Assembly: GCA_037576195.1 (NCBI GenBank) | Contig: CM075103.1 | Location: 30,154,723 to 30,218,722 of the forward strand | Direction of reading: 5' to 3' | Source: Phytoseiulus persimilis | Taxonomy: Eukaryota; Arthropoda; Arachnida; Mesostigmata; Phytoseiidae | Length of the DNA: 64,000 nucleotides | Shown: positions 5,741-44,656 of the stretch, in pieces | Layout of the letters: each line of letters begins with the position of its first letter | Position numbering within the stretch: the first letter of the stretch is position 1 | The notes under the pieces: generated by a model | Told to the model about the DNA's origin: nothing | Databases searched by the model: none | The model's input: only the letters and a program-made list of their open reading frames with translations | Program-made: the position numbers and the translations under genes

Positions 5741-6172
5741 TTGGGTAGATGCAAAAGTTCCGGGCCCCTAATTTCAATCGCTCATAACTCCATCCCAGGT
5801 GGCGCAGAACGATAATAAAATATACGAAATGTGCGGAATTCAGTCAGCTTTCAGATGGAATCACGCGATTTTTTCAAAAGCACCGTGCTCGCAAGAGCGA
5901 TTTTACTGAAAGGGTCGAAATTCGAGAAATCGCGGTTTTGCGATTCCGGCGAAACTAAGATTATGACCCCCTGCTTTCTCTTCGGAATCACGAAGTTCGT
6001 CGAAAAATAAGCGGTTCCAGGAAAAATTGGGCATTTCGGCCACGGCAAAGCGGAGATATCGGCTCCCGAAGATCCGATTTTTTGGTGACCTTCTTCCCGC
6101 CAATTGAACGGTCTCACGGATGGGATACGCTGGAAATTCCCTGGAAACGCTCAAAAGCCTCTCGAAAATGTT
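5741..6172 (+). repeat. left long terminal inverted repeat of the mariner element
   Basis: Matches the reverse complement of 10128-10578 over its full length with small gaps. Examples are GGGCCCCTAATTTCAATCGC at the outer part and GGATACGCTGG near the inner boundary. Confidence 0.85.
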
Positions 6173-6447
6173 TCCTCACCACAGAGTGATCGGCATGCCT
6201 TACCGACGATGACTTCGATTGCTCCAGCAGAGAGAACCTGCTGGTTTTCTCACACTATGTCACGTTCTCGAATGTCAGGCTACGAGAAGCGACGCTGGGA
6301 ACGAGAGATATTGGGATTCCATAATCAGTATCGTTCCACTCGTGCGATGACTAACAGGTTCTTCCAACGCGCTCATTGCAGCAGCTGATCTTTCTTTTTT
6401 CCCGTGAAGTTCGTGAAAGTTTCAAAAACTCCAGCCATCATTGCGGA

Positions 6448-7483
6448 ATGGCCAATCGAGATCAACTGATCCGGTACGCAATGCTCTACGAGTTCCTCAA
6501 GGGGAATTCAGCGGCGGAGACGAACTGTCAAATGGAATCCGTGTTCCGTGAAGCCACTCCGCCTCTCTCCACAGTGAAGAGGTGGTTCGCCAGTTTCCGA
6601 GACGGCAATCAGGGCCTGAACGATGAGCCACGATCAGGCCGACCTGTAAAACTGAGTGACGACGAATTGGTTGCCTTCCTCAACGGCAATCCGTCGATAC
6701 CATAACAACCGACGAGATGGCAGAGCATTTCGCCGTGGATACTTCGACAGTGACTAGGCACCTCAAGAAACTCGGGTTCGTCTCAGAGTTAGACGCTTGG
6801 GTCCCGCCCACCTGTCTGATGACAACGGACGTGATCGTTCCAACATCGCCAGGGCCCTGCTTACCGGGCACTCCTTGGAACCGTTCCTGGACAGGCTAGT
6901 CACGGGCGATCAGAAATGGGTTGTATACCAGAATGCCTCGAGGAGGAGATCATGGAGACAGAGAGGCGCGGAAGCCGGCGCCTCCGCGAGAGCAGGACTG
7001 CATCCCAAAAAAGTCCTGTTTTCCGTCTGGTGGGATGTCAAGGAGTCGTTTATTTTGAGCTCCTGTACCCTGGCACGACAATCACGGCGAAGAAGCACTG
7101 TGAGCAGCTGCGAGAACTCGGAGCGACTCTCCCGAGGAAGCGCCCGGTTTTGCTCAATCGCAGGGGCGTTGTCTTCCACCATGACAACGCTCGACCGCAT
7201 ACCGCTCGGGGAACAGAGGATACATTACGGGAATTTGGATGGGAAGTTCTGGAGCACCCGCCATACTCACCGGACATCGCGCCCTCCGACGACCATCTAT
7301 TCCGGTCGCTGCAGAACTCGATGGACGGCACCTCGTTCAATGACGTTCGCGCGGTGAGGTTTCTTTTTGGTTCATTTCTTCGAGATGGTGAAAACGCCAA
7401 AGTTCTTCCGGAGAGGTATTGAGAAACTTCCTGATCGATGGAGAGAAATCGTCGACAGACAGGGCGACTGTATACCCGAATAA
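6448..7483 (+). pseudogene. mariner transposase (irritans/Hsmar1-like), broken
   Basis: DDD transposase of the mariner family. The start at 6448 (MANRDQLIRYAMLYEFLKGN) is followed by the paired helix-turn-helix DNA-binding region, with WFASFRDGNQGLNDEPRSGR as the linker. The catalytic part carries D1 in LVTGDQKWVVY, the HPKKVLFSVWWD block, D2 in FHHDNARPHTA and D3 in the SPDIAPSDDHLF block (usually SPDLAPSDYHLF), giving the DD34D layout. The stop is at about 7481-7483 after QGDCIPE. The gene is split over three frames, with breaks near 6703, 6800 and 7060, so it cannot make an active enzyme. Insertion of the Helitron-like element 7 bp after the stop left the coding part whole. Confidence 0.9.
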
Positions 7484-7489
7484 TCCTTA

Positions 7490-9764
7490 TCCTTACTATA
7501 TATAACCAGCTGGCCTTTGGCCGACTTGGAGGGGTGATTCCGGAACCGATCTGACGATACTTTTCAAAACGTGGAGGGGTGATTCCGGAACCGATCTGAC
7601 CATACTTTTCAAAACGTGGAGGGGTGATTCCGGGACCAATCTGAGCATTACTTTCCAACTCTGGAGGGGTGATTCAGGGACCAATCTGAGCATTACTATC
7701 CAACTCTGGAGGAGTGATTCCGAGACCAATCTGACCATTACTTTCCAACTCTGAAGGGGTGATTCCGATACCAATCTGAGCATTACTTTCCCACTCTGGA
7801 GGGGTGATTCTGGGACCAATCTGACCATTACTTCCCAACTCTGGAGGGGTGATTCCGGGACCAATCTGGGGATTACTTCCCAACTCTGGAGGGGTGATTC
7901 CGAGACCAATTTGACCATTACTCCCCCACTCTGGAGGGGTGATTCTGGGACCAATCTGGGCATTACTTCTCAACTCTGGAGGGGTGATTCCGAGACCAAT
8001 CTGAGCATAACTTTTCAACTTTGGAGGGGTGATTCCGAGACCAATCTGACCAATACTTTCCAACTTTGGAGAGGTGATTCCGGGATTAATCTGACCATTA
8101 CTTCCCAACTCTGGAGGGGTGATTTCGGGACCAATCTGGGCATTACTTCCCAACTCCGGAGGGGTGATTCCGAGACCAATCTGAGCATTACTTTCCCACT
8201 CTGGAGGGGTGATTCTGGGACCAATCTGGGCATTACTTTCCAACTCTGGAGGGGTGACTCCGAAACCAATCTGACCATAACTTTCCAACTCTGGAGGGTG
8301 ACTCCGAGACCAATCTGAGCATAACTTTTCAACTTTGGAGGGGTGATTCCGAGACCAATCTGACCAATACTTTCCAACTTTGGAGAGGTGATTCCGGGAT
8401 TAATCTGACCATTACTTCCCAACTCTGGAGGGGTGATTTCGGGACCAATCTGGGCATTACTTCCCAACTCCGGAGGGGTGATTCTGGGACCAATCTGGGC
8501 ATTACTTTCCAACTCTGGAGGGGTGACTCCGAAACCAATCTGACCATAACTTTCCAACTCTGGAGGGGTGATTCCGAGACCAATCTGAGCATAACTTTTC
8601 AACTTTGGAGGGGTGATTCCGAGACCAATCTGACCAATACTTTCCAACTTTGGAGAGGTGATTCCGGGATTAATCTGACCATTACTTCCCAACTCTGGAG
8701 GGGTGATTTCGGGACCAATCTGGGCATTACTTCCCAACTCCGGAGGGGTGATTCCGAGACCAATCTGAGCATTACTTTCCCACTCTGGAGGGGTGATTCT
8801 GGGACCAATCTGGGCATTACTTTCCAACTCTGGAGGGGTGACTCCGAAACCAATCTGACCATAACTTTCCAACTCTGGAGGGTGACTCCGAGACCAATCT
8901 GACCATTACTTTCCAACTCTTGAGGGCTGATTCCGAGACCAATCTGATGATTACTTCCCAATTCCGGAGGGGTGATTCCGGGACCAATCTGACCATACTT
9001 TCCCAAGTCTGGAGGGGTGATTCCGCGACCAATCTGACCATACTTCTCCGAATCAGGAAGGGTGATCACGAGACCAATCTGACCATTCTTTCTCGAGTCT
9101 GGAGGGGTGATTTCGAGACCAATCTAACCATACTTCTCCGAATCAGGAGCGGTGATCACGAGACCAATCTGACCATACTTTCCCAAGTCTGGAGGGGTGA
9201 TTCGGAGACCAATCGGACCATACTCCTCCGAATCAGGAAGGGTGATCACAACCCCAATCTGATGATTACTTCCCAATTCCGGAGGGGTGATTCCGGGACC
9301 AATCTGACCATACTTTCCCAAGTCTGGAGGGGTGATTCCGAGACCAATCTGATGATTACTTCCCAATTCCGGAGGGGTGATTCCGGGACCAATCTGACCA
9401 TACTTTCCCAAGTCTGGAGGGGTGATTCCGCGACCAATCTGACCATACTTCTCCGAATCAGGAAGGGTGATCACGAGACCAATCTGACCATTCTTTCCCA
9501 AGTCTGGAGGGGTGATCCCGAGACCAATCTGACCATACTTCTCCGAATCAGGAGGGGTGATCACGAGACCAATCTGACCATACTTTTCCAAGTCTGGAGG
9601 GGTGATCCCGAGACCAATCTGACCATACTCCTCCGAATCAGGAAGGGTGATCACAAGACCAATCTGACCATACTTTCAAAAACCATGATGCTGAATGCTG
9701 ACCCAGTGAAGAGAGAGAAAAGTGCCTCGATGCCAGAGAACGCCGTCCAACCGCGGCCGACTGG
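7490..9764 (+). mobile_element. Helitron-like non-autonomous element H1 carrying a 45-bp minisatellite
   Basis: Begins TCCTTACTATATATAACCAG directly after an A (7489) and ends ...CGCGGCCGACTGG directly before a T (9765). A|TC at the 5' end, CTRR|T at the 3' end and no target duplication are the hallmarks of Helitrons. The same two ends, in opposite orientation, bound the second array at 54683-56837. Almost all of the interior is the 45-bp array. The palindrome GGCCTTTGGCC lies near the 5' end (7513-7523). A non-coding 80-bp stretch follows the array (9681-9764). Confidence 0.65.
7528..9680 (+). repeat. 45-bp minisatellite array 1 (about 48 units)
   Basis: Consensus unit begins GGAGGGGTGATTCCGAGACC and continues with AATCTGACCATTACTTTCCA and ACTCT. 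The length is 45 bp with a few 44-bp units (near 8294 and 8878). Because 45 is divisible by three, several frames on both strands stay open for hundreds of codons. These are a by-product of the repeat, not genes. A higher-order repeat of six to seven units occurs at 8011, 8325 and 8595. Units after about 8940 form a second subfamily with CGAATCAGGA / CAAGTCTGGA junctions. Confidence 0.97.
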
Positions 9765-16800: not shown

Positions 16801-18386
16801 TTGACGTATTTATCTCATGTCATATTTTATCCACACTTCAAACCCTTCTGTGATTACATGAGATCGTTCTGGCTCAAGATCATAGGTCCAGGTAGCCTCT
16901 CCCTTTATAGAGTGACCACCCGCGCAAATAACGCCGTAGAATCAAGCAATTCACGATTAAAGAGAGATCTTGGACATCAACCGCCGATTTGGAATTTAAT
17001 TCGTAGGTATTCCTGTTGCGTGTATCAAATCCGTGCTCCCTGTTCTCGCGGTTCGAAGTCAATCATGCTACGATTCCCGCTGACCACATATTTGAACCTT
17101 GCGCCTTCCAGCCCTGATTTGCGACACCGCACAGGATGTTTCACAAGACGTTGAGCTTCAAGAAGACGGTCAGATAGTCATCCACACCCGCTCCGTGCCC
17201 TGCAAGTATACCATCATCAACGAGCAGCGGATCACTTCAGCCTGGACGCATATGGAAAGAGGCTTAATGAGCCCACGAGAAGCAGTCGAAAGACTCAAAT
17301 ATAGGGCGGGTGGGGGTGAGTCTAGAGTCTGCAAGCTACTTATGCTAGTTTGCCTGCTCAGATTCTTGAGGCGTTCCTTTTCTCGACTCACAATGCTCAT
17401 AATCAGCAGCCCTTCCAGCGGCAGCGTGTCGCGGAAACCCTCGTCGGCAGGAAGCACTCCCTGGTTCGAACATCGATCGAGCAGAATTCCCTTACTCAGG
17501 TCTTGAAGAACGAGCACTGTCCGACTTGAGCAAAGATCTTGGGGAAGTGGATCAGTGGATGGATCGGCGAGAGGCGTTGGAACAGGATGAAAACGATCTC
17601 ACCCCAACCTGGCATTCACTTCATGACCATAATTACGCCAAACACTCTCAACATCGTGACGCGCTCCGGGATCACCGAGCGGATCCTCAGATTCCGCCCC
17701 TCACAGATCGAATGAACGAGGTGATCTACGAAGCGTTAAGGAGGCCTCCATCTGAAAGACTTGTAGACGCTCACGCATCCAGGCTGGACGTTTATCGCAG
17801 AGACCTGGAAACCCTATTCGATAACAATTGGGTCAACGATACTATCATGAATTCGTACCTGAATCTCATCGTCAACCGGAGCAAAGAGGACGCAAACCTA
17901 CCGAAGGTGCACGCTTTCAGCACTTTATTCCTGTTTCGCTATGGGAAGGGATATGATCATGTTCGTGGATGGACGAACCGAGTTGACATATTCGATCAGG
18001 ACATCCTCCTCGTTCCCGTGCACCAGAATTCGCACTGGAGTATGGCCATAGTCGATGTGAGAAACAAGAAAATCAAATATATGGACTCTTTGGGTCACAG
18101 GAACGACGAATGTCTGATCATGCTGCGGAGGGACTTGTCCGAAGAGCTGAGAGACAAGAAGGGGCTGCGGCTCAGTTCCAATGAATGGGATCTCGCGAAC
18201 ATCGGGAACGTCCCGCAGCAGCAAAACGGTTTCGACTGCGGACCGTTCTCATCAAAATACGCGGATTACGGAGCTCAGGACGCCGACCTCAATTTCACTC
18301 AACTTGACATTCCATATTTCCGTCAGCGAAAGATGTACGAAATCTTGACGCAAGTTATGATCCCGACTGGGTATGGTGAAACCTGA
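16801..18386 (+). pseudogene. MULE transposase 3' half with C-terminal Ulp1 protease (5' truncated)
   Basis: Equivalent to exons 5-7 of the gene at 28716-32016. First exon to 17002: SLYRVTTRANNAVESSNSRL with the catalytic Glu of the MULE DDE set. Intron 17003-17111. Second exon 17112-17315 (DVSQDVELQEDGQIVIHT). Intron 17316-17499. Last exon 17500-18386 encodes a complete C48 peptidase: His in QNSHWSMAIVD, Asp in KYMDSLG, Gln in NVPQQQN, Cys in GFDCGPF. Both introns have GT-AG ends and sit at the same positions and phases (phase 1) as in the intact copy. Exons 1-4 are missing, and the acceptor before the first exon is not visible. Confidence 0.88.
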
Positions 18387-18927
18387 GCTTTTTGAGGATT
18401 GTATCTCTCGGCGACGCTTCATTCACGATTCCGCTCCCGAAAGACATAGGCCAAGGTATCCCTTGATTCTTCCCCATATTCGATCTATCCAAGATTCATA
18501 TTTTTAATTCTTCTTGGAAGCTCTGTGCGTGGTACGAGAGCTCCACATGGTCGGCATATGGACGCAGATGCCTAAACCAAACGCCCCTAAGATGAGGGCT
18601 CTCTTCCCTGCACGCTGCGTATAAGAAGCAGATACCACATTCAAATTGGTTAACGCAATAAATCGAGCTGGATGATTGAGTATTGCTGTACAGACGGGAT
18701 ATTCCACGAATCGTACTCACTCTGACCAACTTGATACATTTGCGTGTTGTCGAATTTTCTGGCCAATACATTTCCCAGAGACCCTACAACACTGGGGGCG
18801 GCAGCTTGACCAGAGCCTCCAACGAACCCTCCATCATTCGGAACGCGACGAGTCTCCTGAAAGCTGGCGCAGCCAATCTTCACTCTTTCCCTCGAAAGTG
18901 CTCGAGGTCCGCCATCTTGCTTGCGTC
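18387..18927. other. no recognised gene
   Basis: Short overlapping frames only. No motif recognised after the Ulp1 stop. Confidence 0.4.
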
Positions 18928-19056
18928 CCTATGACGGGACACGGTCATTCTTTCGAAAAACATGGCGACGCAGGGGAGGGAGAAAGATAGGAGGGCAGCG
19001 AAGAGGTAAACAGCCGGACTGCGCGCTATTCAAAATGTTGAAGGCTCTTGAGAGCC
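18928..19056 (-). repeat. dispersed inverted-arm repeat, copy 1
   Basis: Contains CATTCTTTCGAAAAACATGG and the arm ending GGCTCTTGAGAGCC. It is homologous to the arms at 20105-20260, 24853-25095 and 32874-32993. Only one arm is present here. Confidence 0.75.
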
Positions 19057-20104
19057 GCTCGGGACGGAATCAGGCAATCGGTCAGAAGAGTATTTGCTGC
19101 ACTGTTTAAGCCAACGAAACCAAGGCCCTGAATAATTTGGATTCGCAGGTCGCTTCATTCTTCTCGAGTACTGCTCAACTGTCGACTAGTGAGAACTCAC
19201 ACGAATCTTGATTCTCCACCATCACATACTACATACTGCTCGCGATCTTGTCTTCCGTGGAGTCACATCGAGGTCCAGACTCGCAATGGAACTGGAATTC
19301 GACTACCTCGCTGATAGAATACATCGTATAGGCTCGTGGCTGAAGCATGTCTTGCGATTGAGGAAGTACGCATACACGAAGCTGTGTCTTCGGTATAGCG
19401 TCCCACTCGAGTCAGGTGTTTGACTTGAACCGGAACACTGCCGTGTTCCATCGTTCGACGTTTACCGGTATCCCTCTCCAGGGATGAGTATATATAGGAA
19501 TAAAGGAACATGGTACAGTGGGGAACTGTATCCATCCGTAGTACACACGTTTGTTGATTTGCCGTTATCTCCCTATCAGTTGCAGATCTGTTGTTTCAGA
19601 GTTCTACCGACTATCTAGTGGAAAACTCCATCACTCGCCCAAGGCGGTTACCAGTGAATTGAGCGGAAGAATTTGAGCAGTGGTCGTATTTGAGCGAGAG
19701 TCGAATTTGAGCGGGAGTTGAATTTGAGCGACAGCTTGATTTGAGCGGAGGTCCAATTCGATACGTACGCCCGAGGGCCCTCGCCTAGGTACAGATGTAA
19801 ATATTGGAATCTCATATCTTGTGGGTTATAACCCTTCTCGGAATCAATGGCTTCGCAGGAGTCGAACGTCGACCGGAGCCAACTCTCCATCTCCCACTCG
19901 AACTTAGTGAGCGAGCTGTCGCTGCTTCCCTCCCTAGTCGATAACGCTGCTGAGACGATCTCTCATGTGTAGAGCCAAGGCGGGATGACAAAACATGATG
20001 GATAGCTAGTCAGTCAGTCGATAACTCAATGATACAGCCTGTCCAGACATTTGTGCCACATTAAGCTTCCAAGTACATAGGGTCCTGCGTCGGCTTCCTC
20101 AACG
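19057..20104. other. no gene; 17-bp tandem repeat at 19655-19758
   Basis: No gene recognised. A TATA-like GTATATATAGG lies at about 19487-19497. At 19655-19758 six degenerate copies of a 17-bp unit (GAATTTGAGCGGGAGTT and variants) follow one another. Confidence 0.5.
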
Positions 20105-20260
20105 AATGGCTCTCAAGAGCTTTCAAAATTTCAAATGCAGCGCCCTTAGGCTGTGTTCCGTCTGCTGCTCCTCTCTCCCCTGAGCCTCCATGTTTTTCGA
20201 AAGAATGTCCCAGACCCCCCTATGACCGGGTCTAGGACATTCTTTCTAAAAACATGGCCG
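20105..20260. repeat. dispersed inverted-arm repeat, copy 2 (palindromic)
   Basis: The left arm ends CCATGTTTTTCGAAAGAATG. After a loop containing CCCCCCTATGACCGGGTCTA comes the inverted CATTCTTTCTAAAAACATGG. The left arm begins GGCTCTCAAGAGC and matches the inverted outer arm of copy 1. Confidence 0.8.
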
Positions 20261-22526
20261 TCCATGGCTGTAAGCAAAGCGTCATTGGGAGGTCTTTAAC
20301 GGAGCGACTGTGTCTTATGAGGAGAGGGCAGCCAAGCTGAATGACAGGGAATTTCGACGGCTCTTGGGAGTTGGTGTCTCCGGCACCTGCGCACTCATTG
20401 GATGAGTCTTTTCAGCCAGAGGCGAACTTCAATAACTCATACGGAGCAATCGGAGGATTATTGTGTCCGAATTCCAACACGAGAATTTCAACTCTTTTGA
20501 GACTAGATGCTCTGAGAGCGCTATCGGTGGCGAGCTTGCTTCCGAACACGGATTAATCGCAATATTCAGTCAGCGCGGCTGACACTTCATGGTGCGACGT
20601 TTCGGCGAGTTCACGAGTGGGGTCGACGCGGTCAAGAGATTGGAAGGTTTCGCTGGCTACAGTGGTGATACTCCGACCCAGATCGAAGCATGTGAAGCTG
20701 TTCAGTTGAGCTCGTCTCGTCCAACCGATCCGATGGCGAAGATTTTCGGGCTTCGAATTGATTCGTTTTCTAGATTTTGCGCTGGAACCCCAGCAGGCCG
20801 AGAGAGTCATTCCGAAATACACATCCCGACCGAGCTCCGACTCCATCCACGTGATTTATTCGTCTCGTTAGATTCTTTCTGTTCGAGGCTGCGCGAGAGA
20901 GTGAGAGGTGCCCGTGTTTTTTGCCAATTTCAGGATGCAGTCTGTATGGAGCGATCCTGTCTGCATCTGATCCGGAGAGAAGGAGGCAAAGGATAACAGA
21001 AGCTGTCGAGCGCAGGATAGCGAACCTGACAACTTGCGGCCATCTGCTGGCTGCGGACAGCGATGGGCTGACCGCGTTCAAACTAGTTTTCTGATGCTTT
21101 CGCATTACCAGGAGCTGGGTGGCAGATCTAAACTTTCCATGGAACATGATGTAGACAAGGGGAAAGATTCACGGAGAATGATGCTAGTCACCCGCTCTCC
21201 GACGCAGTAGCGTACCGCAAGGGGGGCGGTCCATCCCGGGCATCAAGGCGACGGAGCCATCAAGTTGAGCCTGCCGCTTTCAAGCAGAGATGAGCAAGAA
21301 TCGGCCTCAAGAATCCGGGTCCGGATCCGGCTACGTCAGAAATTCTGAATGTGACTGAAGCATGACTCGAGTCCGGATTCGATTCCAGATTCGGATGTGG
21401 ATTTCTATGCGGATTCGAATCTAAAACCGAGTCGCGTTCGGACTCAACGAGCGGAGCCGAGTCCCAGAGAAATCAATGAGTCCGGATTTTATTCGGGATA
21501 GTCGAATCCGAAACATCGCTATCTTTGCTTCGTAGTGCCTCTCAGAGAGGAGCGCTCGTGAACTCTGTAAGATATTTCGTCCGTTCGCGACTGCATTCTG
21601 TCACAGTTTTTGAAGAAATTAACGTCTGAAATGAAATCTGCGCTGCCAAATAACTTGGATCGTCTCGTGATAAGTCTGCATGGGGATTGATGCTCGAGAG
21701 CTATTTTTCTCTCCCTCGTGAACTCGCGGTCCCAGAATGTCGGGGCGCAGGCGCACGCCAGATCACGGCTTTCTAAACTCAACATCGGAGGACTCATCAT
21801 TTCTCAGTAGCCGTTCGAGTACCCGTTGAAGGAATTCACCCTCGCTATTTGAGGACACTCGAGTAGACTCATTCAGATCTCGCAGCTTTCACCACTCGAC
21901 GTTATTCACGTTTTGTCCTCAAAAACAGAGCATGGCAGCTTGCAATCAAAACCCAATCGCGGACAGTGAGACATCTCCAGCTTCGGCTGGTCCCTCCATA
22001 GAATTCCGAATCGTTGGGCAATGATTCGGTTGCATAGCGCAAGCTCCCGCTGTTGGCAGTCTCATCAGACCATTGTACTGGCAAATATTCAGAGGAGTGC
22101 AACCCCAGCGACGCGGATCCGTTTTTCGAGAGGTTTGAGAATCTTCTTGGCGCGAAACTCGATTCTGCAGCTACATCCGGATCGAGGTATCGCCGGGAAG
22201 GACGTGAATTCAACCTTTTCGCAGCTATTTGTTTGGCGGAGAGACTGATACACTAGAGAAACCTCTAGAAGACCTACGTGACGTCCACCAGAAGATGAAG
22301 AGTTCCATGCAGCGACAGACGCGATCGGGATTCATCTAGTCATCCATGTTTCAATGATGATATGTACAATATATCTCGTTATATATATCTCACAAACATT
22401 GATCAGCAGCTGTCGCGGGCTATTGGAATCGAAGGAGAATGGACGAGTAGATGTATAGATGCGCGCATGGTTTCCTCAACGGTCGATACAAATGCTTGGA
22501 GTCAACAGCGTCGGATAAAAGTGAAA
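20261..22526. other. no gene; hAT-like end at 21205-21240
   Basis: CAGTAGCGTACCGCAAGGGG and the following GGCGGTCCATCCCGGGC (21205-21240) look like an isolated, mutated end of the hAT family at 11777. At 21300-21500 the motif TCCGGATTCGA and relatives recur irregularly. AT-rich stretches lie at 22360-22395. Open frames up to 135 codons carry no recognised motif. Confidence 0.4.
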
Positions 22527-23504
22527 TCATAGAGCTCCCCGCAGGATTTGCAGTATCATCTGACGCCGCAGACGAGGTATGTCGCTCTGCGTGAAATTCA
22601 TCGGAGCGTACTGAGCCGCACAATCCGCATATCTCAGTGCAAAGACTCCGCAGTCAAAATTGTTCTCTTGTCGAGGAACGCTTTCAATGTGTAACAAAGG
22701 CCATTCCTCGTCAACGAATTGAGCTTTCCTCTTGCTGACCATTTCATACTTCAAGTATTCTCGCAAGATTTCTAGATATTTTTTGTGACGGTAACCCAAG
22801 GAATCCATGCTTTTGATCGATTGCTCCCGAAAATCGATGACCACCATAGACCAATGGAGATCGTGATGTAAGGGAATCAGGATTATATCGTAAGCGAAGA
22901 TGTCGACGTTTTTCGTCCAACGACGAACACCCTCGTAGCCATGACTGATGTAGCAGGGAAAGAAGAAGGTGTTGAAGACATGCACCCTCGGAAGGAGCGC
23001 ACACCGCTCGCTCCGTTTCGCGATTAGGTTCAAGTAAATGTTGATTATTGTATCTGTGAGCCAGTTCTGGCCGGAAAGGGTTTCTAGGTCCTTCCGGCTG
23101 ACTACCTGGTTGGAGACCTCTACAAGAGCTAGATTTGGTTCGGAGTCAAACGCCTCATCAATCGTCTCGAGAATCGAATCAGCGGTCGGCAGATCATACT
23201 GTGCATAGTGTTGGTAAGGACCTGCTGAGTTGATCGGGGTCGCCTTGAGAAAGACGTTTTCGGTGCGGCAACCTACTTTCCTCAGTGGGATTTCGGGGAT
23301 GCTAGGAATGCTCATTCTATCTTCTTCGTCTCCGTCGAAGGGACACGCGGCGTACGCATGATCGCCTGTGTGCGGCAGGATTCCCTCGAATCCTGTTGCG
23401 TAGTTGTGGTCTCCGGAGAAGTTGAGGTGTTCGACTGCGTGGATGAGAGAATTTTGTCCCTGTTCGTCAGAATAGTCCTGATCGTTGACGTTGACAAGCC
23501 CATT
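22527..23504 (-). CDS. Ulp1/SENP-type C48 cysteine protease domain
   Basis: Open frame of 325 codons without its own early ATG; the first ATG is at 23315. It encodes a papain-like SUMO-protease fold. Counting from that ATG, the catalytic residues are His154 (HHDLHWSMVVID), Asp171 (KSMDSLG), Gln216 (VPRQEN) and Cys222 (NNFDCGVFALRYAD). The part upstream of the ATG (HLNFSGDHNYATGFEG, then LPHTGDHAY at about 23440-23370) is homologous to the linker before the Ulp1 domain in the MULE gene at 28716-32016. The protease was therefore derived from, or shares a source with, that MULE. No MULE catalytic core precedes it. A pogo-type HTH frame overlaps its 5' end. All catalytic residues are kept, so the domain may be or may recently have been functional. 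Confidence 0.88.
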   Translation of the reverse strand, partial: NGLVNVNDQDYSDEQGQNSLIHAVEHLNFSGDHNYATGFEGILPHTGDHAYAACPFDGDEEDRMSIPSIPEIPLRKVGCRTENVFLKATPINSAGPYQHYAQYDLPTADSILETIDEAFDSEPNLALVEVSNQVVSRKDLETLSGQNWLTDTIINIYLNLIAKRSERCALLPRVHVFNTFFFPCYISHGYEGVRRWTKNVDIFAYDIILIPLHHDLHWSMVVIDFREQSIKSMDSLGYRHKKYLEILREYLKYEMVSKRKAQFVDEEWPLLHIESVPRQENNFDCGVFALRYADCAAQYAPMNFTQSDIPRLRRQMILQILRGAL

Positions 23505-23623
23505 TCAGAGCCTATATCAACTTGCCTTCGTCCTGCGTCCAGTTTCCTGAGAACCTCTATCTTCGTCTCAAAATCGATAGCTTTCCTCGTTACTTTCGGG
23601 CCAGCCGAAATTTTCGGCTTCAT
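23312..23623 (-). CDS. CENP-B/pogo-type N-terminal helix-turn-helix ORF
   Basis: From the ATG at 23623 the protein starts MKPKISAGPKVTRKAIDFET. It contains KIEVLRKLDAGRRQVDIGSE and GLSTSTIRTILTNRDKIL, the HTH of CENP-B, jerky and pogo/Tigger transposases (usually K-IxxxLexGexqxxIaxxxgvSxSTvsxIlkn+dkI). After the HTH (about 23445) the frame loses similarity and ends in a TGA that overlaps the Ulp1 ATG by the sequence ATGA (23312-23315). The Ulp1 frame lies -1 relative to this one. Upstream at 23930-23979 is a pogo-like terminal repeat. This is therefore the 5' end of a pogo-like element joined to a Ulp1 domain. Confidence 0.8.
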   Translation of the reverse strand: MKPKISAGPKVTRKAIDFETKIEVLRKLDAGRRQVDIGSEMGLSTSTIRTILTNRDKILSSTQSNTSTSPETTTTQQDSRESCRTQAIMRTPRVPSTETKKIE

Positions 23624-23868
23624 CTCCTCCAGATTAACTGGCCTTAGAGGAACTATGTGATCCGCGTAAGGACAGTGCGAAACTATGTATAACGGTCGAT
23701 AGCTGAACGCGAAACGGCGATGACGCTGATTCAGGAGAAAAGGCCCGTGAAATTCGCCCTGATCCAGCAGGAGTCGGTATTGTTCGAATAGGTACAAGAA
23801 AAAACCCATGAAAATCAGCACAAAATAGACTTAAGGCAAGATAATTCATTCTCGGTCCCACATCTCCA

Positions 23869-23906
23869 CATAGAAGCTTGCTCCCACTCCTACTGAAGCT
23901 TCTATG
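23869..23906. repeat. short palindrome with foldback-arm motif
   Basis: CATAGAAGCTT (23869-23879) and AAGCTTCTATG (23896-23906) are exact inverted repeats separated by 16 bp. AGCTTCTATG or a close variant is the same motif that marks the inner edge of the arms of FB1, FB2 and FB3. Confidence 0.7.
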
Positions 23907-23929
23907 ATTTCGACTGGAAAAAAAAACGC

Positions 23930-23979
23930 GTTATAGCGAAACCGCGCCAAACGAGACCGCGTTAAACGAGGTCTCAGTG
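23930..23979 (-). repeat. pogo/Tigger-like terminal inverted repeat
   Basis: On the minus strand it reads CACTGAGACCTCGTTTAACG followed by CGGTCTCGTTTGGCGCGG. This is a pogo-superfamily end with an internally repeated motif, and a TA lies directly outside (23980-23981). It lies about 300 bp upstream of the HTH start at 23623, as expected for a pogo 5' end. The opposite end was not found. Confidence 0.65.
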
Positions 23980-24124
23980 TACTTATCACATGGGACCCAA
24001 TTCCTAGAGCGAGTGGGTTCAACCGATCTCTCGTTTTTTTTTGCCCAGGTTCCAGGGTCATTCTCCAATCCCCCCTTGTCAGGCTCAATTTTCTGGCGAG
24101 CTCTTCCTCCCCGGCTTGATCGGT

Positions 24125-24253
24125 GACGCTTTTCATTGTTATGTGGGGCACGGTCCCGGGCTTCCGTCCGCACCTTGCACATCGGGGGTCGATTTCCTGG
24201 TATTTTGCTCTATGCACTCTGTTCGGGGGTATTCCTGCCCAGGCTGGAGCCAT
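24125..24253 (-). pseudogene. LINE C-terminal zinc-finger fragment
   Basis: The reading MAPAWAGIPPNRVHRAKYQE, then RCARCGRKPGTVPHITMKS, resembles the C-terminal zinc knuckle after the RT of many LINEs (C-x2-C-x7-9-H-x4-C). The last cysteine is Ser here, and nothing of the RT precedes it in frame. Confidence 0.5.
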
Positions 24254-24852
24254 AAGTTCGCTTCCTCGGTCGTCTGTAAACAGCCCAAAAGAGGTGACAG
24301 AGGCTCGGTTTCCCTGAGGAACTATTTAGTATCTTCACCGAGGTGCTCAGCGAGCTCGACTGCCGCCGGACTCTTTCGCTTCAATAGCTTCCAATAATAC
24401 GAGAATCCGGGCCCGTTCGTTGGTAACCCTGATAACTTCCTCCTCAAGGAAACATCCCATGCTCATTTTTGACTTCTGCAATGAACTACTCGTTTATTCG
24501 CAATCGTTCGGATGGAACCTTTCGCTTCCGTAACTTCGAGAGGTTCTCCTTCTGTTTTGTGAATGCAAGACGCCCGCCTCGATATCCAGTGACTTGATCA
24601 GGTCAAGTGCCGCAAAGTATGACGAGAATCCTTTCAGAAGCTCCGAAAGAATCGCTAGGCTGAGATAAATGCTGCCGATATCGTTTTGGCGCTTCTCGCC
24701 TGTATGTGTTGGAGACTTTACCGCCTGGGCACCGGCACCACCGAGTTCAAAGAACCTCCAAGAGTTCCTATTTTCCATCTGAGCTACCCTTTCCTAAGAG
24801 TGAGCAGTCGCCTCACTAAGGACCTCCCGGTGATGATCTGCTTAGAAATGTG
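24254..24852. other. no recognised gene
   Basis: A 94-codon minus-strand frame (24494-24778) and shorter ones show no motif I recognise. Confidence 0.35.
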
Positions 24853-25095
24853 CGCCGCCATGTTTTTAGAAAGAATGACCGTGCCCCCCTATGACCGGCT
24901 ACCTCGGCGCCAGCCAGCACGCCCGCCCTCTCCCATGTTCTCATGTAAACAACGCTCGGTGGACCGGGTCTAGATCATTCTTCCGAAAAACATGGCGGCG
25001 GAGCAGACGGTTTTCAAGGGAGAGGGCGCCGAGGAGGCGTTGGAAACGAACGAAGGTCGCGCGCGGTGTTCGAAGCTATGAAGGTTCTTGAAAGG
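24853..25095. repeat. dispersed inverted-arm repeat, copy 3 (two-armed)
   Basis: GCCGCCATGTTTTTAGAAAG and, about 120 bp on, the inverted CTTCCGAAAAACATGGCGGC. The right arm continues GGAGCAGACGGTTTTCAAGG and ends AAGGTTCTTGAAAGG. It is the reverse complement of copy 4 (32874-32993) over about 120 bp. Confidence 0.85.
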
Positions 25096-28715: not shown

Positions 28716-31700
28716 ATGGAAGAAACGATGGAATCCGAGTTTTTCTTCTACGTCGACAAATCATCGAACGACGGAACGAAAAACTACATCTGCTGCAAAG
28801 AATACTTCACGTGAGTCCGACAATTCCCCCGCTTCTCTATTTTCTAAGTTGTCGGTACCGACTCGATACCGGCTCGAACATATGCATTCCGTAGAGATGG
28901 GCCGCTGTTTTCCTACGGGTCTCTTAAGAACGACAACTTTGAATTCCGACGGAAGGGTCTTGAGGTCGCATGGAGTGCATTGATCTTCCCGGCGGGCTCC
29001 TGTGGAGACCTCAGCACATTTTTCCCGAGAATTTCTTACTCTTCGGGTCATTCGAGAGGCCCGTAGTGTCGTAGTTACGGGATGTGTATTTGCCGGCGCG
29101 AATGGTCTATCACGAAAAGCATACTAGCAACTGAGTTTTGCTGTTTTGTAACTTCTTGTCTTCCGGCCTCTTGCAGCAGAACCATCAAATGCCCAGTCCG
29201 GGGAAAGATCTCGCTGGAGGGAGAAGTAAGCTACCTGAGAGGGATCCATAATCATGGTCCAGAAGCGAACGGCCACGGCCACCGTATACGAACTACCCGA
29301 GGAAATTGGTTGAGGAAGTTGGAAGCAGACCCAACACTCTCCCCCGGTGAAGCAATATCGGTAGAAGTAGCAGAGTAAGCTTCCTATGCATTTGAAGCAA
29401 TGGCAAACACCATAAAACCGCTTTGATGAACCCCACGTGAAATGCTGAAGGTATTCCGCTCGGCTTCCAGATTGCCTGTGAATGCTGCGATTGAAATTGT
29501 ACCGGTGCAGCACGTGTGCACCGCACGCCGCTACGCAGCAAAAAGTCGTCCACGGAGAGTTGGAAACTTACACGAATTACACACGGCAATGGTGGAACTG
29601 GCGCTCCGGGGCTACACATTAACCCGAGATGGGGATCGAATAATCAGCATACGTTGTCCCACCTACGACAGCCTGGTCCTAACGTCAAAAAGACAGCTCG
29701 ACCTTCTCCGCCTTCCCACGCTCAGAATGGTTCACGCGGATGCCACATATAAGGTGGTACCGCGGAAGCTCGCTAAGCAACTTTTTACCATACACGGTAA
29801 CTGGAATGGTGACCACGTAAGCAGACTCTCGTTCTTCGTCAACTCACGACGTCGCCTCCCACGCCATGAGCGGACGACCTCCTGTTGACATACATATAAA
29901 TATTTATTTCAATCTCGCTAATTTTCCTCCGCAGGTGGGGATGATTGCCTGTGCCCTCATGAAGGAGCAATCACGGGAAGCATACGTGGAAGTTTTCCGC
30001 GCTTTGAAGCGAGAAGCGCCAGGAATCGTCGTGCCCAGCTACATGGGTGATTTCGACAAAGCTATGCGAGCAGCAGTGCGCTCCGAGTTCGCAGGTGCGC
30101 GCATCCACGGATGCCTGTTTCACTACGCGCAATGCTTAGTGAAACACGCAAGCTCGAGCGCAGTTGGTCTAGCATGTCAAATCAGACGCCCGGGACCGGA
30201 GCTCGAGAAATTCCTGGCTTTCGGAGCCCTCCCTTTGCTCCCGGCCAGCGAAATCGAGCATATTTTCAAGCTCTGCGCTGCCGAAGCCCTGGCAGTCAAC
30301 AGTTCCGTAAGCGTCAACCTCAATCAATTAGATTTCTTGATGGACCTCCGCACATTACTGCTCCGGGACCCAGAGCTAGAGAGAGTCATCTTGGTCCGTT
30401 CCATAGTTTCAGCCGTTCATTGAATACGTGAGGCAAGAATGGCTTGAAAACATTGGAGCGGAGAATCTCTCTCTCTACAGGGTTCCTTGCCGCACGAATA
30501 ACGCTGTCGAGTCCAATAATGCTCTCCTTAGCAGGAAGCTCAAACCTCACGGGCCTACCTGGGACCTAATTGGTGCGTAACATTTATCGTTCACATCAGC
30601 TACGATACTGATTTCGACGACTGATAACATGCTTACGGAGGCGCTTGGTGATCAGACTTGACATTTGCAGCTCAGATTTGTCGTCTCTCCCAAGACGTCG
30701 TGGTGAACTGTGAAATCCGACATGGAGGCGTTGTGCATATTCGATCCAAGCCGAACAGAGCAACAAAGCTTAATAATCGCATGTTGAATCTGAATTGGGA
30801 TCTCTTGGACACAGCGCTCATAACCTCTAAGATGTTCGTGGATCGTATGAAATACCGCGTTGGGGGCTGTGAGTATTCTCACCGGAGAAAGCTGGGATGG
30901 AAAATCGAAATGATCCCTCAAAGCTGTTGAGTATATACACTGATACGGCCACCTCACTCGTCTTAACTAACGAGTAGATCGATTATGATTACAGCTGCGT
31001 TGAAACACATCGTGCTCCCACTCAAGGGAACAGAAAACACAGCCTCGAACCGACTGAGAGCGTGGCTCTCGACGGCACACAAAGACCACGATCATGTCCC
31101 AATGTCAACTTTCTTCGGAGACCACAATTACGCACTGGCTTTCGGAGGAACCCTCCAACATACGGGCGATCACGCCTACTCCAAACTTCCGCCGACTCTG
31201 AACTCGGATCACGATTACGTTGAAACGTCTCCTTCAACTGTCCAGCCATTATATCGTACCGAAGACGCTAACGAAGTTCCCCCATGCCCTGAGCGATGGA
31301 ATCAATCGGCGAGCCTGCCGAGTACTGAAAAAATGCTCTCCATGATCGGAGACGCTTTGGGAGAGGACCCGCATCGAATTGTCGTCCAAGTTTCAGACCA
31401 CATCGTCACGAGACGTAACCTGGAAACCCTGGTCGGACACAACCTCTTAGACGATGTAATAATGAATACGTACTTGGCCCTGATAATCAAACGTAACGGA
31501 GGAAATTCGGAGCTTCCTAAAGTGTACGCATTCGACACATTCTTCCTTTTGACCTACGAAACTCACGGATTTGGGAATGTCGCCCGATGGACAGCGGGAA
31601 AAGATATATTCTCGTACGATCTTGTTCTCGTCCCCGTTCACCGTGACCAGCACTGGGCGATGCTCGTAGTCGATATAGGGAACAAGATCATCAAGAGCAT

Positions 31701-32016
31701 GGATTCACTCAACCGGCGCAACCATAAGTCCATGTCGATGCTTCTTGAGTACTTAGCCAAAGAGCTGCGTCACAGAAAAATATGTGACCTCAACTCCAAC
31801 GAGTGGAAACTCATTAGTGACACCAATGTACCTCAGCAAGACAATGGATCGGACTGCGGTGTCTTTGCCCTCATGTACGCGGACTGCTCTGCTCGGAGAG
31901 CCGGGATGACGTTTTCTCAGAGCGATATGCCGTCTGTACGGCGTCGCATGATATTCGAGATCCTGAATTCCTCAGTTCTCCCAACAAGAGGCCCTCAAGC
32001 TTCATTCAAAGAATAA
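28716..32016 (+). CDS. FLYWCH-MULE transposase fused to a Ulp1 protease, seven exons, apparently intact
   Basis: Predicted exons are 28716-28810, 29177-29374, 29471-29816, 29935-30306, 30413-30572, 30671-30868 and 30995-32016. All introns are GT-AG, phases match at every junction, and the total is 796 codons plus stop. Domains: FLYWCH zinc finger about residues 9-65 (YICCKEYF, KCPVRGK, GIHNHGP); MULE transposase with Asp188 (MVHADATYKVV), Asp252 (SYMGDFDKAM), Cys273-x2-His276 (GCLFHYAQ) and Glu370 (NNAVESSN); C48 protease with His676 (DQHWAML), Asp693 (KSMDSLN), Gln737/738 (VPQQDN) and Cys744 (SDCGVFALMYAD). A branch-point-like TTAACTAAC lies in the last intron. MULE transposases move DNA by a DDE reaction. 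The C48 fold cleaves SUMO-like conjugates, though its target here is unknown. All catalytic residues are present. The nearest MULE terminal repeats were not identified. Confidence 0.88.
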
Positions 32017-40738: not shown

Positions 40739-43700
40739 ATGGCGGCTGCGACGTTCCCGCCGCCTGAGCCGTTCTCGTTCAGGAATGCCGATTGGGTCTT
40801 ATGGTGTCGTCGATTCGAGCGTTTTCGGTCGGCTAACCAGCTCAAGACGAAGAGCGAAGAAGACCAGATCAACACGTTGATCTACGTAATGGGACCGAGG
40901 GCAGAGAAGGTGTATGAGTCGCTAAAGATGCCCGAGGAAACCACGTATGCGGAGGTCAAGAGGAAGATGACGGAGCATTTCTCAGCAGGGAGAAACCCGA
41001 CCGACGAAATGGAGAACCTGATCACGTGCAGGCAGAAGGAGCAAACGGTGACGCGGTTCTACGAGGAGTTGACAGTCGCGGCCTCGAGAGCAACACTCAA
41101 AGACTTGAAACCTGATGATATAGTGCGCGAGTTGTTCATCATTGGATTGGCCAATAAGAAAATCAGCGACCATCTTCGCTACCGGGTGAGAGAGGATTTG
41201 ACGCTAGAGAAAGCTTTGACCATCGCGCAAGGTATGGAGAAAAGGGCCAAGAAGGAAGCCGGAGAAGCGGAAGAAACCTCCGACTTGGGAGTAGATGCGG
41301 TGCAAAAACTCCGGGGAGCACCGCGCCGTCGCCAGCAGGCCCCGGAGGGCAGGAGCCCGTGCAGAGCTTGTGGTTACCGTGAACACAGGGGACAGTCATG
41401 CCCGGCGGTCAATCAGGAGTGCTCAAGGTGCCGCAGGAAGGGACATTTTGCCGCTGTGTGCAGCTCCGGCCGGCAAAGCGTGTCCGAAGTAGAGTGCTTG
41501 GAAGACCGTGACGCGGAGGCGGACGGTCGTGCTTTGTTCCTGGGAGAGATATCGGTCGACCTATTGATCCGATCGGGCGGAGAGCACCCTGCGCGTTTTG
41601 TCGCTTTGGCGGTTGGGCGGACCGCTGTGAGGTTTAAGGTTGACACGGGAGCAGACGTCACCTGCCTGGATGTTGGTTCTTATGATGGGTTGTGTCCCAA
41701 ACCTTCTTTGGCGGTTTGCCCCGCCAGGCTTCGCTCGCCGAGTGGGTATCTGCATGTGTTTGGAGAGTTCCGAGCGACAGTGCGATTCAAGAAAAACGAG
41801 TACGAGCTTCGAGTGGTGGTGGTGGCGTCTGGGGGATCAAATCTGCTGTGGAGACCGGACGCGGAGCGGATGGGGGTCGTGAGCTATAACCTGGACGAGA
41901 CAACAGAGAAGACAATACTGGAGGAATTCGAGGACTGCTTCGCAGAGTCGGGACTTCTAAAGATAGACCCCATCAGGCTCACGTTGAGGGACAATGCACA
42001 ACCAGTGGCGATACCCACGGCAAGAAACATACCGTTTCCCCAGTTGGAGACTGTTAGAGAAGAGTTGGAGCGAATGGAGAGGTAGGGAGTGATAAGGAGA
42101 GTCACCGAGCCGACGGAGTGGTGCAGCGGCATGGTGGTTGTACCAAAGAAGACAACAGAGGATGGGAAGAAAAGGATCAGAATCTGCGTGGACTATAAGG
42201 CCCTCAATCGTTGCCTGAGGCGGCGCCGATTCTACTTGGATACCCTGGAAGACATTGCACCTAGACTCGCGAGTTCGAGGTTCTTCACGACCTTGGACGC
42301 GGTCAGTGGTTTCTGGCAGAAGCCTCTCCACGAAGACAGCCAGCTTCTGACAACGTTCATGACACCGTTCGGGAGGTTCTGTTTCACACGATTCCCGTTC
42401 GGTATCACCGACAGGAGCGAAATTTTCCAGGAAGTCATGAAGGATATGTTCCGTGAACTGTCCGGTGTTGAGGTGATAATCGATGACCTGTTGATCCATG
42501 CAGCGACAAAGAGTGAGCACGACAGAAGATTGCGTGCGGTCTTAACGAGGATTCGAGAAACGGGACTGAAGCTGAACAGGGAAAAGGCGAAATACGCTCA
42601 AAGCGAGGTGGAATACTTTGGACATTTCATCTCGCCGGACGGATACAGGCCACACCCAGACAAGATAAAAGACCTGCTAGCCATGGAGGCACCGAAAAAC
42701 ATTAGTCAACTGCGGGCCGTAATGGGTATGTTCAACTACCATACAAAATTCTTTCCCCAATTGGCAACCGAGCTGCGGCCTATCTCCTCATTGCTTTCGG
42801 AGAAGAATGCATTCTTGTGGGAAGACACCCAGGAACAGGCGTTCAGGAGGGTGAAACGGCTTATGACGAGTCCGACAATATTGGCATTTTATGACCCGTC
42901 TCTGCCAACGGCGGTCAACGCGGACGCGAGCGGTTACGGGCTTGGGGCTGCGTTGCTACAAAAGCATGAGGCATGCTGGAGACCGGTCGCGTACGCTTCA
43001 AGAGTGTTGAGTCAAACGGAGCAGAGGTATGCACAGATCGAAAAGGAGTGTTTGGCGGCGGTGTGGGCGTGTGAGAAGTTCGAGCGGTATCTTGTTGGCT
43101 TGCCACAGTTCCATTTGAAAACGGATCATAAGCCATTGGTGCCACTGATGACAACAAAGAACTTGGCGGATGCTCCGATCAGATGTCAAAGGATGCTGCT
43201 GCGCCTAATGAGATTCAACGCGACCGTTTCGCACATAGCCGGAACCGACATGATAATGGCGGACGCTTTGTCTCGAGCCCCCAATCCGGAGCAAAACCCG
43301 ACGTCAGACATGGAGAAAGTGACAGAGGAGTACGTGGGAGCGATCGAGGAAGCATTGCCTTGTTCCGGGTTCTTCTTGCAGAGGCTCGCCAGAGAATCGG
43401 TGAGAGACGAAGTGGTCTCGAGGGCGATACAGATGGTCCGGAACGGTTTTCCAAAAGGGAATAAAAAGGTACCTGGAGAATTGGCTGCGCTGATCGGAAA
43501 CAAACAGGAGCTTTCTGTGGTGAACGATGTTTTGTGGTTTCGGCAGCGTTTGGTCATCCCTGTGAGCATGAGACGCGAGATGCTTGGACGACTGCATACG
43601 GGTCACATAGGGATAGAGAAGTCCTTGAAGCGGGCAGAAACTTGCGTTTGGTGGCCGAAAATACGCAAGTCGGTCGGGAGCTTCATCGACGAGTGCAACT

Positions 43701-44656
43701 TCTGTTTGGAAAACAGACCTGCGCAAAGACACGAGCCATTGAAGCCGGTCGAGATACCCAAAGGGCCATGGAAGAAGATCGCGATTGATTTCGGTTTGGA
43801 CAGCTCCAAGAGAAAGTTTGTGGCGATTGTGGACTACTACTCAAAATGGTTGGAGTTGGAACACATGACCACTACCACGGCAGAAGCGCTCATCGGAGTA
43901 ATGAACGGGATTTTCGCTGCTCACGGATACCCGGAGGAAGTCGTGAGCGACCAGGGACCTCCATTCACAAGTGAGACGTGGAGGAAGTATCTCCGCAGCA
44001 GGGAAATTCGACAACGTTTCTCCAGTGCAAATTTCCCTCAGAGTAACGGAGCGGCAGAGAGTGCTATCAAGATAGCAAAACGAATACTGAGACAAAGGGA
44101 TCCAAAAAGTGCGCTATTGGCATACCGTTGCACACCCCATTCGGCGACCGGCTGGGCGCCTTCGCAGCACCTGTACGGTCGGCTGCTCCGTTCTGAGTTG
44201 CCCGTCCCGGAAGATCAGTTGAAGCAGGAGATCGTGGATCCGGCGTTGGCTATGAGACGTGCGACGGAGTTGGCCAAGAAGTTCTATAACAGACATAACG
44301 GAGTACGGCCTTTGCCTCCCTTGGAGGTTGGACAGCCGGTGCGTCTTCAGGATACCGAAGGAAGGTGGACGGTCCGCGGAGAGGTATCCGCAAGGGGAAA
44401 CGACAGATCCTATCAGCTGACTACCGAGGGAGCCACGCTAAACAGGAACAGATTCCATCTAACAGAGGATCGCTTACAAGAGAGATCATCGAGCTCGGAT
44501 GGAGAAGCAGAGATATTCTACAGCGCAGCTGAAGAGTCAGAGAGCAGCGGGTCGGGTGGATCCGGAGAGACCACCATAGCAGAAGAAGCAGAGTGCGGCG
44601 AACGACCGCTACGACGGAAAAGGGAGCCGGCGTGGCTCAAGGAGTTTGTTAGATGA
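40739..44656 (+). pseudogene. gypsy gag-pol polyprotein, one in-frame stop
   Basis: One frame of 1,305 codons interrupted only by TAG at 42083-42085. Gag at the start has two zinc knuckles (CRACGYREHRGQSC, CSRCRRKGHFAAVC). The protease carries VDTGADVT. RT carries LDAVSGFWQ, FPFGITDRSEIFQ and catalytic IIDDLLI. RNase H carries VNADASGYGLG, KECLAAVWA and KTDHKPL. Integrase has an HHCC finger (HTGHIGIEKSL, CNFCLENR) and the DDE triad in IAIDFG, VVSDQGPPF and SNGAAESA. The stop lies between protease and RT, not at a gag/pol border, so a nonsense mutation is more likely than programmed readthrough. The C-terminal tail is acidic and Ser-rich. Confidence 0.95.

What the first reader, a model, noticed from the sequence alone, without database searches (positions are those of the whole stretch)
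22527..23979. Chimera: pogo-type terminal repeat and HTH joined to a MULE-type Ulp1 protease
Going down the minus strand there is a pogo-like end (CACTGAGACCTCG... next to TA), about 300 bp, a CENP-B-type HTH ORF, and then, in the -1 frame, a complete Ulp1 domain preceded by linker sequence found otherwise only in the MULE-Ulp1 gene (SGDHNYATGFEG, HTGDHAY). The HTH stop and an in-frame Ulp1 ATG overlap as ATGA. This is either an accidental fusion of two transposons or a new DNA-binding protease (HTH recruits, Ulp1 desumoylates). The catalytic residues are all kept.
Basis: partly seen in the sequence, partly recalled or inferred. Interest (0 to 1): 0.85.

Follow-up and report, generated by a model that had tools for sequence, protein, structure and literature searches.

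The report
Internally deleted nested transposon, not chimera
One jumping gene landed inside another in a mite-like genome, and one copy later lost its middle, which left two unrelated gene fragments side by side; this looks like ordinary transposon decay and not a new DNA-binding protease.

Summary
In detail: a pogo end, a CENP-B-type HTH ORF and a complete Ulp1 domain sit together at 22527-23979 (-), in different frames. The cause can be read base by base. The window holds a 4.66-kb MULE (20228-24887, 9-bp target duplication CCTATGACC). Three near-identical longer copies (about 9.4-9.5 kb, on other large contigs, with other target duplications) keep the two halves 4.84 kb apart. There, a 2.27-kb pogo element with its own TA duplication sits in the 5' part of a MULE that encodes a transposase and Ulp1. 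Two MULE copies show the empty pogo site, and one pogo copy lies outside the MULE. The window copy lost 4839 bp, from inside the pogo transposase gene to inside the Ulp1 exon, at a GAA microhomology. The HTH ORF is 136 residues of the pogo transposase plus 34 out-of-frame residues; the second HTH and the DDE domain are gone. The exact junction occurs once in the 181-Mb assembly, and no other Ulp1 match found has a pogo match within 1 kb. An ordinary deletion derivative of a composite transposon.

The parts
20219..20227 (.). left copy of the 9-bp target site duplication CCTATGACC of the MULE
20228..24887 (-). MULE insertion, 4660 bp, ends GGGTCTAGGACATTCTTTCTAAAAACATGG / GGGGCACGGTCATTCTTTCTAAAAACATGG; internal-deletion derivative of a MULE-plus-pogo composite of about 9.48 kb
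22527..23315 (-). ATG-initiated Ulp1 (Peptidase_C48) ORF, 262 aa, SENP1-like; C-terminal part of the MULE's Ulp1 exon
22527..23420 (-). retained part of the MULE Ulp1 exon, including the linker SGDHNYATGFEG / HTGDHAY; ends at the deletion junction
23418..23420 (.). deletion junction: GAA microhomology; 4839 bp present in L021 are missing here
   Evidence: exact junction found once in the assembly
23312..23824 (-). HTH ORF: counted from 23824, residues 1-136 come from the N-terminus of the 635-aa pogo transposase (CENP-B_N), residues 137-170 are Ulp1-exon DNA read out of frame
23421..23979 (-). retained 5' end (559 bp of about 2271) of the nested pogo element, with its terminal repeat CACTGAGACCTCG
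23980..23981 (.). TA target duplication of the pogo insertion (right copy; the left copy lies in the deleted part)
23982..24887 (-). 5' part of the MULE beyond the pogo insertion
24888..24896 (.). right copy of the 9-bp target site duplication CCTATGACC

Best explanation
A pogo (Tigger/TIGD1-like) transposon inserted at a TA in the 5' part of a MULE that encodes a MULE transposase and a SENP1-like Ulp1 protease (shown by alignment to copies with and without the pogo). The composite then moved as a MULE to several contigs (shown by different target duplications at otherwise near-identical copies; that the MULE transposase did it is inferred). The window copy lost 4839 bp between a GAA in the pogo transposase gene and a GAA in the Ulp1 exon (the deletion is shown; the mechanism, microhomology-mediated or interrupted gap repair after excision, is inferred). 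The result is a non-autonomous element that puts a truncated pogo HTH ORF directly in front of a truncated Ulp1 exon in another frame. It most likely has no joint function; at most its intact-looking MULE ends still let it be mobilised by longer relatives (inferred).
For: With window 22400-24060 as query, bases 1-1021 and 1019-1661 match as two separate pieces at 99-100% on C1, C2 and C4; the whole query matches only at its own place (40 matches shown, 40 of 51 candidates scored). The three stretches are collinear with the window on both sides; in L021, window up to 23420 = L021 up to 2731 and window from 23418 = L021 from 7568. L021 6073-7980(-) is a 635-aa open frame with CENP-B_N, HTH_Tnp_Tc5 and DDE_1; 136 residues of the window HTH ORF equal it except for one. 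L029 and L026 are continuous across the pogo site with a single TA. A 96.8% identical pogo copy between TA and TA lies in L028, outside the MULE. Target duplications: CCTATGACC (window), CCGTGAGAC (C1), GTCAAGATT (C2), 8 of 9 bases matching (C4). The junction 25-mer occurs once in the assembly (exact matches only).
Against: Both ORFs remain open and the Ulp1 catalytic residues are kept, which the accident reading does not need; youth explains it, as the Ulp1 ORF differs from L021 at 3 codons (2 non-synonymous) and from L022 at 5 (3 non-synonymous). No transcript data were available, so expression across the junction is not excluded. Whether the deletion came before or after insertion at this site is not known. 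The C4 copy's target duplication has one mismatch.
Confidence: 0.97

Rival explanations
1. A new two-part DNA-binding SUMO protease: the pogo HTH recruits and Ulp1 desumoylates, as one protein through splicing or frameshift, or as a coupled pair through the ATGA overlap.
For: Both ORFs are open, ATGA overlap, catalytic residues kept.
Against: The junction is a deletion between two elements that longer copies hold apart; it occurs once (exact matches); of 61 Ulp1 matches, 1 has a pogo match within 1 kb, and that is this locus; the HTH ORF ends in 34 out-of-frame residues and lacks the second HTH; the ORFs are in different frames. None of the 120 listed (of 125) Ulp1 relatives shows CENP-B_N and none of the 120 listed (of 1172) pogo relatives shows Peptidase_C48; those searches keep only proteins of 0.55-1.75 times the query length.
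Confidence: 0.01
2. The truncated HTH ORF acts as a trans-acting repressor of pogo (as the KP deletion derivative does for the P element, recalled), with the Ulp1 part irrelevant.
For: A CENP-B_N domain remains, and longer pogo copies exist for it to compete with.
Against: The HTH_Tnp_Tc5 domain of the full transposase is lost; single copy; no expression data.
Confidence: 0.02
3. Assembly artefact: the two halves were joined by misassembly of near-identical copies.
For: The joined halves are 99-100% identical to other copies.
Against: The MULE has a perfect 9-bp target duplication at this site that differs from those of the other copies, and it differs from L021 on both sides of the junction. 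Reads were not available.
Confidence: 0.02

Closest known systems
Internally deleted non-autonomous DNA transposons (Ds, KP-type and the like; class recalled)
   Same: intact-looking ends and target duplication, internal deletion with short microhomology, loss of the transposase
   Different: the deletion runs from a nested second transposon into the outer element's Ulp1 exon, so two unrelated coding fragments abut
MULEs carrying Ulp1 (Kaonashi/KIU MULEs of plants; Mutator elements of hydra and lancelet with Ulp1, per passages of PMC2836005 and PMC13317346)
   Same: MULE transposase domain PF10551 and Peptidase_C48 in one element, here with 9-bp target duplications
   Different: mite-like host; Ulp1 appears to be the last exon of the transposase gene, same strand (by eye), whereas a passage of PMC2528002 gives the Ulp domain of KI-MULEs in reverse orientation
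pogo/Tigger (TIGD1-like) transposons
   Same: TA target, CENP-B_N + HTH_Tnp_Tc5 + DDE_1 in the longer copy; the ten best listed relatives are 50-61% identical, the one of them with a name being TIGD1-like
   Different: nested in a MULE and spread with it; the window copy keeps only 559 bp

Membership tests
MULE (Mutator-like element) | terminal inverted repeats with a target duplication of about 8-10 bp (recalled; lengths of 8-11 bp in passages of PMC6446971) | tested here: met
   CCTATGACC on both sides of 20228-24887, similar repeats at both ends
MULE (Mutator-like element) | MULE transposase domain | tested here: met
   met in the longer copy L021 (PF10551, 28.7 bits against a cut-off of 27.6, E 1.9e-6); in the window copy this part is deleted
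pogo (Tc1/mariner superfamily) | TA target duplication, CENP-B-type HTH and DDE_1 | tested here: met
   L021 5858-8128 with TA on both sides, single TA in L029 and L026; PF04218, PF03221, PF03184
pogo (Tc1/mariner superfamily) | complete element in the window copy | tested here: not met
   559 of about 2271 bp kept; DDE_1 and HTH_Tnp_Tc5 not found in the window ORF
Ulp1/SENP protease (C48) | catalytic domain with His, Asp, Gln, Cys | tested here: met
   PF02902 positions 1-208 of 217 and alignment to SENP1 2ckg; residue roles recalled; activity not tested
new HTH-Ulp1 fusion protein | one open frame or conserved recurrence | tested here: not met
   different frames, found once
new HTH-Ulp1 fusion protein | transcript across the junction | not testable with these tools
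   no RNA data held

The most novel reading that the evidence does not exclude
The deletion derivative is expressed from the pogo or MULE 5' end as one mRNA that gives a short pogo-end-binding protein and, by reinitiation at ATGA, an untethered SENP1-like protease, so that one defective element interferes with both parent transposons.
Probability: 0.02. Interest if true: 0.5.

Novelty: new member of a known kind. Interest (0 to 1): 0.12.

Why it matters
It removes a false lead (an apparent new domain pairing) and gives a clean example of how nested transposons plus one deletion can place unrelated coding fragments next to each other. The composite itself, a pogo carried along by an Ulp1-bearing MULE in what is probably a mite, is a modest addition to MULE biology.

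Tried and rejected
Rejected: a functional HTH-Ulp1 pair (found once, different frames, deletion junction). Other places match only parts of the query at 67-97%; of these I looked at those in L024-L029. COX1, tried for naming the organism, gave no match (0 of 1 genome, 8 of 14 control genomes ring). L006 gave no usable reading frame for the trees: a 34-residue wrong frame was used, so it was dropped, as were three fish SENP3 rows on a very long branch. The comparison of the Ulp1 ORF with L023 runs out of register after an in-frame length difference and was not used. Papers: PMC13359780 (outline with abstract, and a term search: Ulp1, peptidase, mite and nested 0 times), PMC6446971 (term passages; Ulp1, peptidase and C48 0 times), PMC13317346, PMC2528002 and PMC2836005 (term passages); all others only as search listings. 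I make no claim that MULE-Ulp1 elements of mites are absent from print.

Full report
What is there. On the minus strand the window has, from 23979 downwards, a pogo-type end next to TA, an HTH ORF (23824-23312) and an Ulp1 ORF (23315-22527, or 23504-22527 from stop to stop). Pfam finds CENP-B_N in the first and Peptidase_C48 in the second. The Ulp1 part aligns over residues 63-259 with SENP1 (2ckg) and keeps His, Asp, Gln and Cys (the roles of the residues are recalled). The two ORFs are in different frames.

Where it comes from. The window lies at C3:30154723-30218722 of a 181-Mb assembly in 127 contigs. A DNA search with window 22400-24060 over that assembly returned the whole query only at its own place; on C1, C2 and C4 bases 1-1021 and 1019-1661 match at 99-100% as two pieces some kilobases apart; the other matches are partial, at 67-97% (40 of 51 candidates scored). 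The stretches fetched around the three (L021, L022, L023) are collinear with the window on both sides, and L022 and L023 agree with L021 over 9036 bases at 99.8% and 99.4%. In L021 the breakpoints are 2731 and 7568, so that 4839 bp are missing from the window, with GAA at both breakpoints and once at the junction. A 25-base pattern over the junction occurs once in the assembly, exact matches only.

The pogo half. In L021 the pogo region holds a 635-aa open frame (6073-7980, minus) with CENP-B_N, HTH_Tnp_Tc5 and DDE_1. 136 residues of the window HTH ORF (counted from 23824) equal it with one substitution; the last 34 are Ulp1-exon DNA in another frame. The ten best listed relatives are 50-61% identical, and the one of them with a name is TIGD1-like (120 of 1172 listed). 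The element spans L021 5858-8128 (2271 bp, counted from what print), with TA on both sides and ends CACCTTTACCTCGCTTAACGC / CACTGAGACCTCGTTTAACGC. L028 holds a 96.8% identical copy between TA and TA, away from the MULE. L029 and L026, two MULE copies, are continuous across the site with a single TA. So the pogo was inserted into the MULE.

The MULE half. The window element runs from 20228 to 24887 with CCTATGACC on both sides. The C1, C2 and C4 copies have CCGTGAGAC, GTCAAGATT and, with one mismatch in nine, TATTACCTA. Different target duplications with the pogo at the same inner site show that the composite spread after the pogo had entered. The C1 copy is about 9.48 kb long, and the ends printed give about 9.4-9.5 kb for the other two. 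The MULE transposase domain (PF10551, little above its cut-off) is in L021 3337-4011 (minus), upstream of the Ulp1 exon on the same strand. Comparison by eye with MULE copies at window 17.1-18.4 and 29.4-32.0 kb suggests GT-AG introns and Ulp1 as the last exon of the same gene (inferred).

Is the pairing repeated? Among 61 Ulp1 matches and 74 pogo matches (69 of 322 candidates scored, so a lower bound), pairs on the same strand less than 4 kb apart are the window (321 bp) and the three composites (3.7 kb; in C4 the pogo is in two pieces, 3.7 and 3.9 kb away); one opposite-strand pair lies 2.0 kb apart. None of the 120 listed of 125 Ulp1 relatives shows CENP-B_N, and none of the 120 listed of 1172 pogo relatives shows Peptidase_C48, among the precomputed domains.

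How it works. Shown: nested insertion, spread of the composite, deletion. Inferred: the MULE transposase did the spreading; the deletion arose by microhomology-mediated repair, possibly interrupted gap repair after excision; the remnant could still be moved in trans because its ends look intact. Not shown: any expression, and any splice junction. The Ulp1 ORF differs from L021 at 3 codons (2 non-synonymous) and from L022 at 5 (3 non-synonymous), so the open frames are explained by youth and say nothing about selection.

Known or new. Ulp1 in Mutator elements is in print for plants and for hydra and lancelet (passages of PMC13317346, and PMC2836005). Internally deleted and nested transposons are a familiar class (recalled). 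The host is probably a phytoseiid or related mite: the product of the C3:1845542 Ulp1 gene (L002) is 86.0% identical over 215 residues to a protein of Galendromus occidentalis, and the best hit of the L001 gene is from Tropilaelaps mercedesae (48% over 99% of the query). The species itself was not identified. The finding is an ordinary deletion derivative and scores low.

Noticed in passing
window 18927-20228; C1:43256787-43258055; C2:6152164-6155885: MULE insertions lie directly against the ends of other MULEs. In the window and on C1 the two neighbours have overlapping target duplications shifted by 1-2 bp (CCCTATGAC / CCTATGACC; CCCCGTGAG / CCGTGAGAC), as if the same target next to an existing end were used again. 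On C2 three copies abut, but matching flanks were seen for only one of them.
   Followed up: partly
L021 1838-4405 (-); window 17096-18386 and 29430-32016 (+): MULE transposase and SENP1-like Ulp1 look like one spliced gene with Ulp1 as last exon (by eye). In a midpoint-rooted tree of 20 rows with weak support these Ulp1 domains fall near a mite SENP1-like paralog (L002, Galendromus), which hints at capture from, or donation to, the host.
   Followed up: partly
L021, L022, L023: A pogo element inside a MULE has spread with it in three near-identical copies of about 9.4-9.5 kb; in 2 of the 3 the pogo transposase frame is uninterrupted over 634-635 aa.
   Followed up: yes
G000 C4:25856123-25934494: A cluster of 11 Ulp1 matches, ten of them in opposite-strand pairs about 2.7 kb apart.
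   Followed up: no
L029 3512-7853: A retroelement that looks gypsy-like by eye interrupts the MULE copy at C1:8.54 Mb (no domain search was run on it).
   Followed up: no
window 62013-63722 (-); 40739-44656 (+): Another pogo-type transposase (DDE_1, E 1.2e-41), and a gypsy-type pol (reverse transcriptase, RNase H, integrase) after an ORF with a gag match below its cut-off.
   Followed up: no
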